Shown here: positions 47,685 through 56,937 of the stretch, in pieces
How the letters are laid out: the number at the start of each line of letters is the position of its first letter
Position numbering within the stretch: the first letter of the stretch is position 1
NCBI RefSeq assembly: GCF_000246855.1
Contig: NC_016609.1
Coordinates: 3,596,001-3,660,000, forward strand
Source of the DNA: Niastella koreensis GR20-10
Lineage (GTDB): Bacteria; Bacteroidota; Bacteroidia; Chitinophagales; Chitinophagaceae
Reading direction: 5' to 3'
Length of the DNA: 64,000 bases
Program-made: the position numbers and the translations under genes
The notes under the pieces: generated by a model
The model's input: the letters and a program-made list of their open reading frames with translations, nothing else
Told to the model about the DNA's origin: nothing
Databases searched by the model: none

Positions 47685-47798
47685 CCTGTTATTTATTTCT
47701 CAGCAAAGCTCCTTCAAATACTTACGGCGTGTTTTGTTTTAAAGTTCAATCTTTCTTTGTTTTAAAGGCCAGCTGTTTAAACGAGATGAATACCCTGC

Positions 47799-48050
47799 CA
47801 ACTGAAATCAATTCGTTTTCAGTTTAAAACAGTACGCTACCAACTGAAAACACCCTTTTTTCAGTTTAAAACAATGTGCCACTAACTGAAATCGATCCGA
47901 TTTCAGTTTAAAACGATATGCTACCAACTGAAATCACCCCGTTTTCAGTTTAAAACAATGCACTAAAAACCGAAATCGCCCCATTTTCAGCTGGTAACAA
48001 TACAGTACTATAAGAAAACAATGCGTTTTTAGCTGTATCAAACCACAATC
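47799..48050. repeat. Tandem 42-bp hairpin repeats, six units
   Basis: Units start exactly every 42 bp at 47799, 47841, 47883, 47925, 47967 and 48009. Units 1-4 contain AACTGAAA and TTTCAGTT as inverted arms, with an 11-bp-arm version in unit 3 (AACTGAAATCG ATC CGATTTCAGTT). Units 5-6 are more diverged. Conserved TTTAAAAC follows the right arm in units 1-4. No coding frame passes through on the plus strand (unit 3 begins with a stop). It lies in the divergent gap between the reductase and the FN3-like gene. Confidence 0.8.
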
Positions 48051-54560: not shown

Positions 54561-54649
54561 AGCGTTACTTTTGTAAACACAAAAATAGCGGAGTTAACCC
54601 GCTGAAAAAATAAGAGTTGAGAAAATAGTTTATGATTTTTTTAAAAAAA

Positions 54650-54680
54650 TTTGGTGGGATATGATTTTCTCCTATTTTTG
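54650..54680 (+). promoter_or_regulatory. Strong promoter of the tRNA-Lys array
   Basis: TTTG at 54650-54653 and TATTTTTG at 54673-54680, spaced 19 bp, match the Bacteroidetes -33/-7 consensus in full, and CACTCCC follows as in rRNA and tRNA promoters of this phylum. The predicted start of transcription is near 54687, about 108 bp before the first array unit. Confidence 0.8.
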
Positions 54681-54794
54681 CACTCCCAAAATAAACGCAC
54701 CGATACGAAAAACGGTCAGAAAGGAAAGAAAATGAAGGAGTTGAATAGCGATTTTGGGCCAAGTTCTTCAAATAATTAAGACCTTTATAAGGTT

Positions 54795-54856
54795 GATCTC
54801 GTAGCTCAGTTGGTAGAGCATCCCGATTTTATCGGGAGGGCCCTGGGTTCGAAATC
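54795..54856 (+). pseudogene. tRNA-Lys-like minigene, unit 1
   Basis: 62 nt. D-arm GCTC/GAGC kept; anticodon stem CCCG/CGGG with TTT in the loop; the T-arm 3' half and much of the acceptor 3' strand missing (10-nt deletion). The end CGAAATC can pair with the 5' GATCTCG except at one position. Followed by the spacer type ending TAAGCTCTTTAGGTC. Confidence 0.8.
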
Positions 54857-54890
54857 TGTCTTATTCAAATAATTTTAAGCTCTTTAGGTC

Positions 54891-54963
54891 GATCTCGTAG
54901 CTCAGTTGGTAGAGCACAACACTTTTAATGTTGGGGTCCTGGGTTCGAGTCCCAGCGGGATCA
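54891..54963 (+). tRNA. tRNA-Lys(UUU)
   Basis: 73 nt and complete. Acceptor GATCTCG / CGGGATC with one G-T pair, D-arm GCTC/GAGC, anticodon stem CAACA/TGTTG with loop CTTTTAA (anticodon TTT), T-arm CTGGG TTCGAGT CCCAG, discriminator A. CCA is not encoded. A hairpin terminator follows at 54980. Confidence 0.95.
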
Positions 54964-54979
54964 CAAAAAATGGCAGAAA

Positions 54980-55006
54980 GGCTATCAAAAATGGTAGCCT
55001 TTTTTT
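54980..55006 (+). terminator. Terminator after tRNA-Lys copy 1
   Basis: GGCTATC and GGTAGCC (one G-T pair) with a short A-rich loop, then seven T. After it an ATGCC-start short frame of 12 codons appears, like a lost copy of the start of the nuclease gene found after tRNA-Lys copy 2. Confidence 0.75.
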
Positions 55007-55063
55007 ATGCCAGAATTATTGGTTAAGTATCTTCGCAGCTCGTAAGAGTAAAGTTCTTTGGTC

Positions 55064-55125
55064 GATCTCGTAGCTCAGTTGGCAGAGCATCCCGATTTTA
55101 TCGGGAGGGCCCTGGGTTCGAAATC
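55064..55125 (+). pseudogene. tRNA-Lys-like minigene, unit 3
   Basis: 62 nt; same fold as unit 1, with a single change in the D-loop (TTGGCAGAGC). It follows a 57-bp unique stretch after the first terminator. The spacer after it is the type ending AAAGTTCTTAGGTC. Confidence 0.8.
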
Positions 55126-55158
55126 AATCTTGCTAACATAATTTAAAGTTCTTAGGTC

Positions 55159-55220
55159 GATCTCGTAGCTCAGTTGGTAGAGCATCCCGATTTTATCGGG
55201 AGGGTCCTGGGTTCGAAATC
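55159..55220 (+). pseudogene. tRNA-Lys-like minigene, unit 4
   Basis: 62 nt; variable region GGGTCCTGGG rather than GGGCCCTGGG, closer to the intact tRNA. Spacer of the AAAGTTCTTAGGTC type. Confidence 0.8.
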
Positions 55221-55253
55221 AAACTTGCTAACATAATTTAAAGTTCTTAGGTC

Positions 55254-55315
55254 GATCTCGTAGCTCAGTTGGTAGAGCATCCCGATTTTATCGGGAGGGC
55301 CCTGGGTTCGAAATC
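55254..55315 (+). pseudogene. tRNA-Lys-like minigene, unit 5
   Basis: 62 nt; identical in layout to unit 1. Spacer of the TAAGCTCTTTAGGTC type, with one change (TATC for TGTC) at its start. Confidence 0.8.
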
Positions 55316-55349
55316 TATCTTATTCAAATAATTTTAAGCTCTTTAGGTC

Positions 55350-55412
55350 GATCTCGTAGCTCAGTTGGTAGAGCATCCCGATTTTATCGGGAGGGCCCCT
55401 GGGTTCGAAATC
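55350..55412 (+). pseudogene. tRNA-Lys-like minigene, unit 6
   Basis: 63 nt; one extra C (GGGCCCCTGGG) in the segment that replaces the T-arm. Spacer of the TAAGCTCTTTAGGTC type. Confidence 0.8.
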
Positions 55413-55446
55413 TGTCTTATTCAAATAATTTTAAGCTCTTTAGGTC

Positions 55447-55508
55447 GATCTCGTAGCTCAGTTGGTAGAGCATCCCGATTTTATCGGGAGGGCCATGGGT
55501 TCGAAATC
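55447..55508 (+). pseudogene. tRNA-Lys-like minigene, unit 7
   Basis: 62 nt; GGGCCATGGG in the T-arm remnant. Spacer of the AAAGTTCTTAGGTC type. Confidence 0.8.
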
Positions 55509-55541
55509 AATCTTGCTAACATAATTTAAAGTTCTTAGGTC

Positions 55542-55603
55542 GATCTCGTAGCTCAGTTGGTAGAGCCTCCCGATTTTATCGGGAGGGCCATGGGTTCGAA
55601 ATC
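55542..55603 (+). pseudogene. tRNA-Lys-like minigene, unit 8
   Basis: 62 nt; GAGCCTCCCG instead of GAGCATCCCG next to the anticodon stem, and GGGCCATGGG as in unit 7. Spacer of the AAAGTTCTTAGGTC type, leading into the second intact tRNA. Confidence 0.8.
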
Positions 55604-55636
55604 AATCTTGCTAACATAATTTAAAGTTCTTAGGTC

Positions 55637-55709
55637 GATCTCGTAGCTCAGTTGGTAGAGCACAACACTTTTAATGTTGGGGTCCTGGGTTCGAGTCCCA
55701 GCGGGATCA
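55637..55709 (+). tRNA. tRNA-Lys(UUU), second copy
   Basis: 73 nt, identical to the first intact copy over the whole tRNA. Anticodon TTT in loop CTTTTAA; T-arm complete; CCA not encoded. A hairpin terminator and a GIY-YIG gene follow. Confidence 0.95.
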
Positions 55710-55721
55710 CAGAAATGGTAA

Positions 55722-55753
55722 AGAGGCTATCAAAATTGGTAGCCTCTTTTTTT
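55722..55753 (+). terminator. Terminator after tRNA-Lys copy 2
   Basis: AGAGGCTATC and GGTAGCCTCT form a 10-bp stem (one G-T pair) followed by a run of T. The start codon of the nuclease gene follows directly at 55754. Confidence 0.8.
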
Positions 55754-56002
55754 ATGCCTTGTATGTATATTTTGTATTCGGAAAAACTGAACAAATACTA
55801 TATCGGTGCTTGTATAAACATGGAACGTCGTTTATACGAGCATAACATTGGCCATTCCAAATTCACTAGCTTAGGTATTCCCTGGAAATTACTCTATACA
55901 GAACAATTTGAAGATTTGGACGCTGCAAAAAAGCGAGAGCTGCAGCTAAAAAGGATGAAGTCCAGAAAATACATAGAAGAACTAATATCAAAAAAAAAAT
56001 GA
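55754..56002 (+). CDS. GIY-YIG nuclease-domain protein
   Basis: 82 residues from ATG 55754; an in-frame extension upstream would run back into the tRNA and is rejected. The nuclease motif is MYILYSEKLNKYYIGAC, followed by the Arg helix (NMERRLYEHNIGHS) and the Glu in DAAKKRELQLKRMKSRKYIE. It matches single-domain GIY-YIG proteins of the UPF0213/YhbQ type. It starts one base after the T-tract of the tRNA-Lys terminator, so it is transcribed by readthrough or its own weak start. Single-domain GIY-YIG proteins next to tRNA genes are frequent in Bacteroidetes; the link to the array is discussed in the findings. Confidence 0.9.
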   Translation: MPCMYILYSEKLNKYYIGACINMERRLYEHNIGHSKFTSLGIPWKLLYTEQFEDLDAAKKRELQLKRMKSRKYIEELISKKK

Positions 56003-56079
56003 TCGAACACCAGTTGGCAAACAGAAGACAGCAACACTTCTAAAATGGTTTCATTTAGCCTGTACGATCTGTGAAATCG

Positions 56080-56937
56080 CTAATCTATCTTCACCACTCC
56101 TTCCTTTACCACGGGAAAGTTTGAAAATATTTTCCCATCATGACCGGGAATAATATACCTGGGATTAGTCACCAACGTTTTCATTCTTTGCATGGCATTT
56201 ACATATCCCGCCGGGTCATACGTACCACCTACCGAGGCTGGTTGCATGTGTTCCAGGCTATAATATACCCAGATATTATCAGAAGCAAGGATCACTTTAT
56301 TTGTACCCGTTTCAACCAGTACATACTGCGAATTGAAAGTGTGTCTTGACCCGGTAAATACTTTTATTCCGGGAATAATTTCCTGGTTGTCGCCATTCAC
56401 AAGCGTTAATTTACCTGCCAGGTTTTTGTCAATCAGTTTTCTTACATCCCGCTTATTAAATCCGCCGGAATTGCCGCCCTTTTGCCAGGCAGCGCCCACA
56501 TAATAATAGAAATCGTCCTGCTGCATCCATACCTGCGCATTGGGAAACAGATCAAGTCCATCAATGTGGTCCCAGTGGGGATGACTTAAAACAATGTCAG
56601 TAATATCAGCAGGTTTCAAGCCCAATTTCTGCAGGGTTGAATCGGGCCGCACATAGTTTACAATGGCAAATTCTTTTGCATCGGGAATATCGTTTAGAAA
56701 ACCGGCGTCAACTAAAATGGTCTTACCGTTTCCTTTTATCAACCATATCATGAAGTCGATCCTTAAACTATCGCTTGCAGGCCCTTTGTCAACCCAATCA
56801 GCTATCGGCCACAAGTGGGCAGACGAAGCAAATTTCAACGCATAGACTTCGTATTGTTTCGATTGACACCAGGTACTTTTCGAGGCAAACAAGCAGATAA
56901 GAACAATCAGAATAAAGTTTCTCATTAATGCATTCAT
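56080..56937 (-). CDS. Metallo-beta-lactamase-fold hydrolase, N-acyl-homoserine-lactonase-like
   Basis: 285 residues with a signal peptide (about 1-24, ending TWCQS). The zinc site is plain: LSHPHWDHIDGLDLFP gives the H-x-H-x-D-H motif; later His and Asp lie in FTGSRHTFNSQYVL, ILASDNIWVYYSL and RYIIPGHDGKIFSN. The arrangement resembles the AHL-lactonase group. As a periplasmic or secreted enzyme it could break signalling lactones or other esters. It is monocistronic on the minus strand. Confidence 0.88.
   Translation of the reverse strand: MNALMRNFILIVLICLFASKSTWCQSKQYEVYALKFASSAHLWPIADWVDKGPASDSLRIDFMIWLIKGNGKTILVDAGFLNDIPDAKEFAIVNYVRPDSTLQKLGLKPADITDIVLSHPHWDHIDGLDLFPNAQVWMQQDDFYYYVGAAWQKGGNSGGFNKRDVRKLIDKNLAGKLTLVNGDNQEIIPGIKVFTGSRHTFNSQYVLVETGTNKVILASDNIWVYYSLEHMQPASVGGTYDPAGYVNAMQRMKTLVTNPRYIIPGHDGKIFSNFPVVKEGVVKID

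What the first reader, a model, noticed from the sequence alone, without database searches (positions are those of the whole stretch)
54795..55709. Tandem array of tRNA-Lys with seven shortened tRNA-like minigenes
Two intact, identical tRNA-Lys(UUU) genes sit in a nine-unit array with a period of 95-97 bp. The other seven units share the 5' acceptor strand, D-arm and GAGC, but carry a 10-nt deletion in the T-arm/acceptor region and a replaced anticodon stem around the same TTT. Tandem tRNA arrays with many uniform degenerate copies are unusual in bacteria. The uniform deletion and the shared new stem mean the variant was amplified after it arose, not that units decayed separately. This could be a source of tRNA-like regulatory RNAs (decoys for lysyl-tRNA synthetase, RNase P or RNase Z) or a selfish repeat.
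Basis: seen in the sequence. Interest (0 to 1): 0.88.

Follow-up and report, generated by a model that had tools for sequence, protein, structure and literature searches.

The report
tRNA-gene parasite and its broken copies
The odd row of shortened tRNA copies appears to be wreckage left by a small DNA-cutting mobile gene that lives beside tRNA genes in Bacteroidota, which would make it a widespread selfish element of essential genes.

Summary
In detail: two identical intact tRNA-Lys(UUU) genes and seven uniform short copies. This is one case of an architecture found across Bacteroidota. In 26 genomes drawn at random from 245 carriers, 54 of 59 close relatives of this nuclease lie beside a tRNA or tRNA fragment; of 59 more distant GIY-YIG proteins, 10 do. 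Full order: tRNA 5' fragment / intact tRNA / terminator / nuclease / tRNA 3' fragment. Many isotypes are used. Fragments usually carry a rewritten hairpin, most often TCCCGA/TCGGGA. The nuclease is under purifying selection with catalytic residues kept. In this genome a tRNA-Met locus repeats the theme with another hairpin. Best reading: a homing-type mobile element of tRNA genes, like fungal mitochondrial mobile ORFs and phage SegB; the window array is orphaned 5' fragments amplified after the element arrived. Cutting and mobility are inferred, not shown; the hairpin's role is open. Decoy-RNA function has no support beyond anatomy. Ten literature searches listed no description in bacterial chromosomes.

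The parts
54795..54857 (+). short unit U1: tRNA-Lys 5' half, rewritten anticodon stem, truncated at the T-loop
54891..54964 (+). intact tRNA-Lys(UUU), copy 1, followed by its own terminator-like hairpin (by eye; the scan does not list it)
   Evidence: ARAGORN; Rfam 72.7 bits; sequence
55007..55045 (+). ATG directly after the T-run of copy 1 with a short frame; possible relic of a deleted nuclease gene (weak, by eye, untested)
   Evidence: sequence; the same-genus locus L010 has a like stretch
55064..55126 (+). short unit U2
55159..55221 (+). short unit U3
55254..55316 (+). short unit U4
55350..55413 (+). short unit U5
55447..55509 (+). short unit U6
55542..55604 (+). short unit U7
55637..55710 (+). 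intact tRNA-Lys(UUU), copy 2, identical to copy 1
55720..55749 (+). terminator hairpin of the tRNA; its T-run abuts the nuclease start codon
   Evidence: one site found; shuffles give 1.4 on average, so the scan alone is no proof
55754..56002 (+). GIY-YIG nuclease gene, 82 aa
   Evidence: Pfam PF01541 E 1.1e-12; profile E 1.2e-37, the window protein being one of the profile's own rows

Best explanation
The array is the residue of a homing-type mobile element that parasitises tRNA genes. SHOWN: relatives of the window's small GIY-YIG nuclease lie next to tRNA genes across Bacteroidota; the nuclease gene sits between an intact tRNA and an orphaned part of the same tRNA, either as intact tRNA - terminator - nuclease - tRNA 3' part, or as promoter region - tRNA 5' part - nuclease - intact tRNA; many loci carry orphan parts on both sides; orphan parts usually carry a hairpin stem that the intact tRNA lacks; the units form tandem arrays. 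INFERRED: the nuclease cuts tRNA genes (5' orphans tend to end at the T-loop); repair from an element-bearing copy inserts the nuclease together with a fresh tRNA part, so the host keeps a working tRNA while the native part is orphaned; repeated cutting and repair amplify segments into arrays. In the window, orphaned 5' parts were amplified (seven copies) and one nuclease gene remains. The rewritten stem most likely makes orphan parts unlike the working gene (no re-cutting, no recombination back, no competing tRNA fold); this last step is the weakest.
For: Adjacency: an intact same-strand tRNA ends at most 110 nt before the nuclease in 61 of 80 loci of the most similar relatives and in 25 of 30 best-scoring loci of a phylum sample; among all hits (E<1e-8) of 26 random carrier genomes, 54 of 59 close relatives (E<5e-16) are tRNA-linked against 10 of 59 distant ones, and 25 of 600 control windows look tRNA-like. 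Control: of the 30 best-scoring tRNA loci of the own genome less the two tRNA-Lys, 1 of 28 has such a nuclease, and that one is the tRNA-Met array. Anatomy: of 127 tRNA-nuclease pairs (123 loci), 101 have a tRNA 3' fragment after the nuclease (87 of them aligned to the last base of the tRNA), 55 a tRNA-like stretch before the tRNA, 46 both; of the 55, 30 end 2-12 nt past the start of the T-loop motif, 13 are full-length, 12 end elsewhere. A T-run lies between tRNA and nuclease in 114 of 127. Arrays with 8, 5, 3, 3 and 3 nucleases. Isotypes cluster on the nuclease tree but switch: 53 changes against 142.6 in shuffles, 0 of 200 as low. Selection: dN/dS median 0.13, below 0.5 in 121 of 121 unsaturated pairs; catalytic positions kept in 161-165 of 165. 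At seven same-genus loci the flanking gene is 94.8-97.8% identical but no whole nuclease gene is found, two keeping a stub behind the terminator. Parallel: SegB needs its nuclease activity to amplify a tRNA segment and cuts inside tRNA genes; its motif RAWTSGAAC (PMC13096335) is, by my own reading, the reverse complement of the tRNA T-loop.
Against: No cleavage, transposition or transcript was measured. The protein is only a catalytic domain, without the DNA-binding part that homing GIY-YIG enzymes usually have (recalled). The window's nuclease has no recognisable tRNA 3' fragment behind it (L218). 17 of 38 variant loci have no nuclease in the stretch fetched. The working tRNA keeps its native T-loop, so why it escapes cutting is unexplained. 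5 of 59 close relatives are not visibly tRNA-linked. On the tree the isotypes Met, Pro, Leu and Gly are not clustered at all. SegB's motif was found at 23 of 83 cut sites only.
Confidence: 0.68

Rival explanations
1. The short units are expressed tRNA-like RNAs that act as decoys for lysyl-tRNA synthetase, RNase P or RNase Z, or against a tRNA-Lys-cutting toxin.
For: Uniform units with their own upstream stretch; UUU kept at the same place; the three units folded are more stable than shuffles, z -2.7 to -3.4; five of seven pass the Rfam tRNA gathering score, a sixth.
Against: Lowest-energy fold of the three units folded is not a cloverleaf; no acceptor 3' strand; same kind of fragment beside many isotypes and nuclease genes; one short unit in all at the same locus in seven same-genus genomes; no promoter-like site was found at 54600-56100 (sigma-70 consensus of other bacteria, so weak).
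Confidence: 0.07
2. Plain tandem duplication of a decayed tRNA gene by slippage or unequal crossing-over; the nearby nuclease gene is incidental.
For: Nine near-identical direct repeats; 17 of 38 variant loci without a nuclease in the fetched stretch; tRNA-Met locus with four units at exact 102-bp spacing and no nuclease match in 1.8 kb.
Against: 54 of 59 close nuclease relatives are tRNA-linked, and 101 of 127 tRNA-nuclease pairs have a tRNA 3' fragment right behind the nuclease.
Confidence: 0.12
3. The hairpins are a REP-like palindrome family that spreads into tRNA arms, with the GIY-YIG nuclease as its mover, analogous to RAYT/REP.
For: TCCCGAN{3,8}TCGGGA 139 against 2 in the control and TCCGCCN{3,8}GGCGGA 93 against 6 in the own genome, both also inside tRNA fragments; genomes with the nuclease have more TCCCGA palindromes, median 8 (n=245) against 2 (n=145), Spearman 0.53; stems often match between the two flanks of a locus while loops differ.
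Against: Of 15 TCCCGA sites inspected, 6 have a T-run after and 2 more an A-run before, as ordinary terminators do; relatedness of genomes is not controlled and elements add palindromes themselves; 9 genomes with five or more nucleases have at most 2 palindromes and 12 without have at least 10; the hairpin interior holds the neighbour's anticodon in 32 of 82 against 17.9 by permutation, so the stem seems to change around the loop rather than as an inserted block.
Confidence: 0.12
4. A domesticated amplifier: the host keeps the nuclease because it raises tRNA gene dosage on demand, for example against tRNA-cutting toxins, as SegB does for phage T6.
For: Seven same-genus loci have 1-4 intact tRNA-Lys copies; SegB precedent.
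Against: The arrays I looked at mostly multiply broken, not intact, tRNA copies; the four tandem intact copies of L029 are an exception.
Confidence: 0.08

Closest known systems
Mobile ORF elements (mORFs) of fungal mitochondria, e.g. Allomyces atp6 and Glomus atp6/atp9/cox2/nad3 (PMC3630166, passages seen)
   Same: Endonuclease gene inserted in an essential gene together with a re-supplied gene end; the native end is orphaned downstream.
   Different: Protein genes and mitochondria there; here bacterial tRNA genes, both 3' and 5' versions, tandem arrays and rewritten hairpins in the orphan part. A passage on Glomus atp6 names a LAGLIDADG enzyme, not GIY-YIG.
SegB, free-standing GIY-YIG homing endonuclease of phages T4/T6 (PMC13096335, abstract and sections 9-10 seen; PMC2988022, passages seen)
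   Same: GIY-YIG nuclease beside tRNA genes; amplifies a tRNA segment.
   Different: Phage-borne; no orphan tRNA fragments described in the parts I saw. SegB was not compared by sequence here. One IMG/VR scan with profile A2 found no relative.
UPF0213-type small GIY-YIG proteins and SLX1
   Same: Same catalytic domain; nearest solved chains 1zg2 (E 1.8e-14), 1ywl (2.2e-10), SLX1 7cq2 (2.5e-6).
   Different: Of the distant half of the sampled hits, which I take to be of this kind (not tested), 10 of 59 are tRNA-linked.
REP elements and RAYT transposases (recalled)
   Same: Dispersed palindromes and a small nuclease gene flanked by them.
   Different: Nuclease is GIY-YIG; the own genome's two Y1_Tnp loci (about 3.3 kb each) hold neither palindrome.

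Membership tests
GIY-YIG nuclease | PF01541 domain above its cut-off | tested here: met
   48.5 bits against 22.6
GIY-YIG nuclease | catalytic Tyr, Tyr, Gly, Arg, His, Glu positions (roles recalled) | tested here: met
   invariant in 18 of 18; 161-165 of 165 tRNA-linked rows
Free-standing homing endonuclease (Seg type) | cuts an element-free allele and is inherited preferentially | not testable with these tools
   needs enzyme and crosses
Free-standing homing endonuclease (Seg type) | catalytic domain plus separate DNA-binding domain (recalled) | tested here: not met
   82 aa, Pfam match covers residues 2-73
mORF-type element | nuclease gene between a complete host gene and an orphaned native part of the same gene | tested here: met
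   met by the family: 101 of 127 pairs with 3' fragment, reverse version in L276, L251, L348. In the window itself only 5' fragments are recognisable, none behind the nuclease
mORF-type element | re-supplied part is of foreign origin | not tested
   tRNA halves are short and conserved; no test was tried
RAYT/REP | Y1 transposase gene flanked by the palindromes | tested here: not met
   L363, L364 hold no TCCCGA or TCCGCC palindrome
tRNA pseudogene debris | units decay separately | tested here: not met
   seven units 98.7% identical on average over 44 nt
Integrase/att remnant at a tRNA | integrase gene with 3' tRNA fragment as att site | not tested
   no family search for integrases was made

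The most novel reading that the evidence does not exclude
Bacteroidota carry a phylum-wide, isotype-specialised family of minimal nuclease elements that live by homing into tRNA genes, re-supplying the tRNA half they break, and whose structure-sensitive nuclease also exchanges hairpin arms, so that orphan tRNA arms and transcription terminators converge on the same dispersed palindromes: a GIY-YIG counterpart of the RAYT/REP system.
Probability: 0.15. Interest if true: 0.93.

Novelty: new variant of a known kind. Interest (0 to 1): 0.8.

Why it matters
tRNA genes are known as landing sites of integrases and introns; a minimal nuclease gene that breaks a bacterial tRNA gene and hands back the missing half would be a new way to parasitise an essential gene without killing the host. 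It would explain tRNA fragments, odd tRNA calls and tandem tRNA arrays in a large phylum, and offers a testable link between a GIY-YIG nuclease, tRNA copy number and dispersed palindromes.

Tried and rejected
Phage origin: one scan of IMG/VR with profile A2 found 63 pattern matches and no relative. RAYT/REP: two Y1_Tnp genes in the genome, neither near the palindromes. Simple DNA-protein palindrome: 4 to 14 nt lie between CCCGA and TCGGG in the matches, which speaks for a folded strand rather than a fixed dimer site; inference. Immunity by the rewritten stem alone: does not explain why stems are alike but loops vary, nor the native T-loop of the working gene; kept only as part of the best explanation. 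Literature: ten searches listed no paper on tRNA-linked GIY-YIG elements in bacterial chromosomes; only the best rows of longer lists were shown, and the library holds open-licence papers only, so this is no proof of absence. Of PMC5966550 (tRNA array units) I saw only the search listing.

Rows dropped: five of 132 called tRNAs were dropped because they carry the hairpin themselves, so that no intact tRNA in the 127 pairs has it is partly by construction; L271 and L273 as duplicates; the 127 pairs lie in 123 loci, four being counted twice. In one search, eight own-genome variant loci and five that I judged repeats of another were left out (38 of 51 kept). In one search, 14 of 132 hits with E>=1e-8 were not counted. 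The 80 named loci are the best of 435 and were found with a mostly tRNA-Lys-linked query, so isotype shares there are biased; one search's 30 loci are best-scoring too. Same-genus comparison: seven of nine relatives (G001-G006, G009); G007 and G008 were not compared at this locus. dN/dS pairs were limited to >=60% protein identity; 857 of 983 pairs were saturated at synonymous sites. The tree has few columns and 93 open forks of 209.

Full report
WHAT IS THERE. The array is confirmed unit by unit: two identical intact tRNA-Lys(UUU) genes and seven short units, spaced 95-97 nt in seven of eight steps, the eighth being 173 nt because the first intact gene keeps its terminator. Short units share the tRNA 5' half, carry a new anticodon stem of equal length with TTT in place, and stop resembling a tRNA right after the T-loop TTCGA. 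Each unit, intact or short, has its own upstream stretch, similar between units. As RNA, each of the three short units folded prefers a rod with the new hairpin, not a cloverleaf.

Forty-three bases after the second intact gene, immediately behind the T-run of its terminator, starts an 82-aa GIY-YIG nuclease gene, 55754-56002 (PF01541, E 1.1e-12). Searching for the rewritten stem in other genomes led to loci where short tRNA pieces lie at the end of such nuclease genes, some nuclease stop codons falling inside the D-arm of the fragment.

THE ARCHITECTURE IS WIDESPREAD. A profile of 18 such proteins has hits in 245 of 390 genomes of the phylum (E<=1e-8). To avoid picking only the best, I drew 26 of the 245 at random and fetched their hits. 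Hits fall into two groups: 54 of 59 with E<5e-16 are tRNA-linked, 10 of 59 weaker ones are (linked means an intact tRNA within 250 nt upstream or a tRNA-like stretch of at least 25 bits in the flank; 25 of 600 control windows reach this; the cut at 5e-16 was chosen after seeing the table). In the 80 best named loci 61 have an intact same-strand tRNA within 110 nt upstream; of the 33 hits there without one, 4 lie within 110 bases of a contig end and several are later copies in an array. Isotypes seen are Lys, Ala, Arg, Val, Asp, Met, Ser, Pro, Asn, Leu, Thr, Gly and, once each, Tyr, Ile and Gln. Named hosts are mostly Chitinophagales, Algoriphagus and other Bacteroidota, with a few records from Calditrichaeota, Melioribacteraceae and Neomarinimicrobiota (titles).

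TWO MIRROR FORMS. Form A: intact tRNA, terminator, nuclease, tRNA 3' fragment, often with a second copy of the terminator. Form B: promoter region, tRNA 5' fragment, nuclease, promoter region, intact tRNA (L276 tRNA-Pro, L251 and L348 tRNA-Ser). Both form tandem arrays: L290 eight, L234 five, L225, L251 and L276 three nucleases. Of 127 form-A pairs in 123 loci, 101 have the 3' fragment, 55 show a tRNA-like stretch before the intact tRNA and 46 have both; of the 55, 30 end 2-12 nt after the T-loop motif begins, 13 are full-length (some are ordinary neighbouring tRNAs) and 12 end elsewhere.

THE HAIRPIN. 70 of the 101 3' fragments and 34 of the 55 upstream stretches hold TCCCGA..TCGGGA (82 and 35 hold CCCG..CGGG). 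Others carry different stems, but the two flanks of one locus often match (TGGCGCC in L254, TCCCGCC in L245, TCCCGAGC in L240, TTCCGATT in L198 and L221) while their loops differ or not. The hairpin interior holds the neighbouring anticodon in 32 of 82 cases, against a permuted mean of 17.9 and maximum of 28; without Lys it is 14 of 53. In most tRNA-Asp elements seen the T-arm is the arm replaced. The stems are also dispersed palindromes of the genome: TCCCGA 139 against 2, TCCGCC 93 against 6 for the backwards control. Of 15 TCCCGA sites inspected, 6 have a T-run after and 2 more an A-run before, like terminators. Across 390 genomes, those with the nuclease have a median of 8 TCCCGA palindromes, those without 2, with clear exceptions both ways and no control for relatedness.

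THE SAME GENOME REPEATS THE THEME. A tRNA-Met at 395221-395292 has three short units before and four after it, period about 81, stem TCCGCC/GGCGGA, followed by another nuclease gene of this kind. Another tRNA-Met at 342475-342548 has one unit before and four units at exact 102-bp spacing after it, each hairpin + tRNA 3' half + terminator, with no nuclease match in the 1.8 kb taken. tRNA-Thr genes before what reads like tuf (by eye) have one 5' and two 3' units.

DYNAMICS AND SELECTION. In seven of nine same-genus genomes compared the flanking dehydrogenase-like gene is 94.8-97.8% identical, but intact tRNA-Lys copies number 1 to 4, a whole nuclease gene is found only in the window, and stubs of its first 21 and 11 residues remain in two (a third match of 7 residues, E 0.32, is no evidence). 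One of the seven has a short unit and one a lone hairpin fragment. Nuclease genes are under purifying selection (dN/dS median 0.13, 121 of 121 unsaturated pairs below 0.5) and keep the catalytic positions. Isotype is inherited with the nuclease lineage but switches many times; Met, Pro, Leu and Gly do not cluster.

READING. The order 're-supplied gene part, nuclease gene, orphaned native part' is that of fungal mitochondrial mobile ORFs (PMC3630166, passages). SegB of T6 shows that a GIY-YIG nuclease can cut tRNA genes and amplify a tRNA segment (PMC13096335, abstract and sections 9 and 10); its motif, found at 23 of 83 cut sites, reads, reversed, like the T-loop, where many 5' fragments end here. 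I therefore take the window array as orphaned tRNA-Lys 5' parts of such an element, multiplied after insertion. Cutting, homing and the role of the hairpin remain to be tested.

LIMITS. No expression data. Genomes are one per species and some are drafts, but array cases also lie on single-contig genomes (G000 window; G349 with L251 and L276; G507 with L234).

Noticed in passing
window 47789-47990: Tandem hairpin repeat, 42-bp period, 4.8 copies (AACTGAAA..TTTCAGTT), between two reading frames.
   Followed up: no
L346 (own genome 394000-395900): Second tRNA minigene array, tRNA-Met, with another hairpin and its own GIY-YIG nuclease.
   Followed up: yes
L359 (own genome 341600-343400): Four units of hairpin + tRNA-Met 3' half + terminator at exact 102-bp spacing behind an intact tRNA-Met, no nuclease match in the stretch taken.
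   Followed up: partly
L360 (own genome 6102900-6106100): tRNA-Thr fragments with TCCCGA hairpins inside the tRNA cluster before a tuf-like gene.
   Followed up: partly
own genome, 139 sites: TCCCGA-N-TCGGGA palindrome strongly over-represented; some sites look like terminator stems.
   Followed up: partly
L144, L146, L196, L204 and others: A second palindrome sits in the T-loop of the orphan 3' fragment.
   Followed up: partly
L280, L281: High-scoring nuclease genes in arrays separated by other palindromes, with only weak or partial tRNA traces.
   Followed up: no
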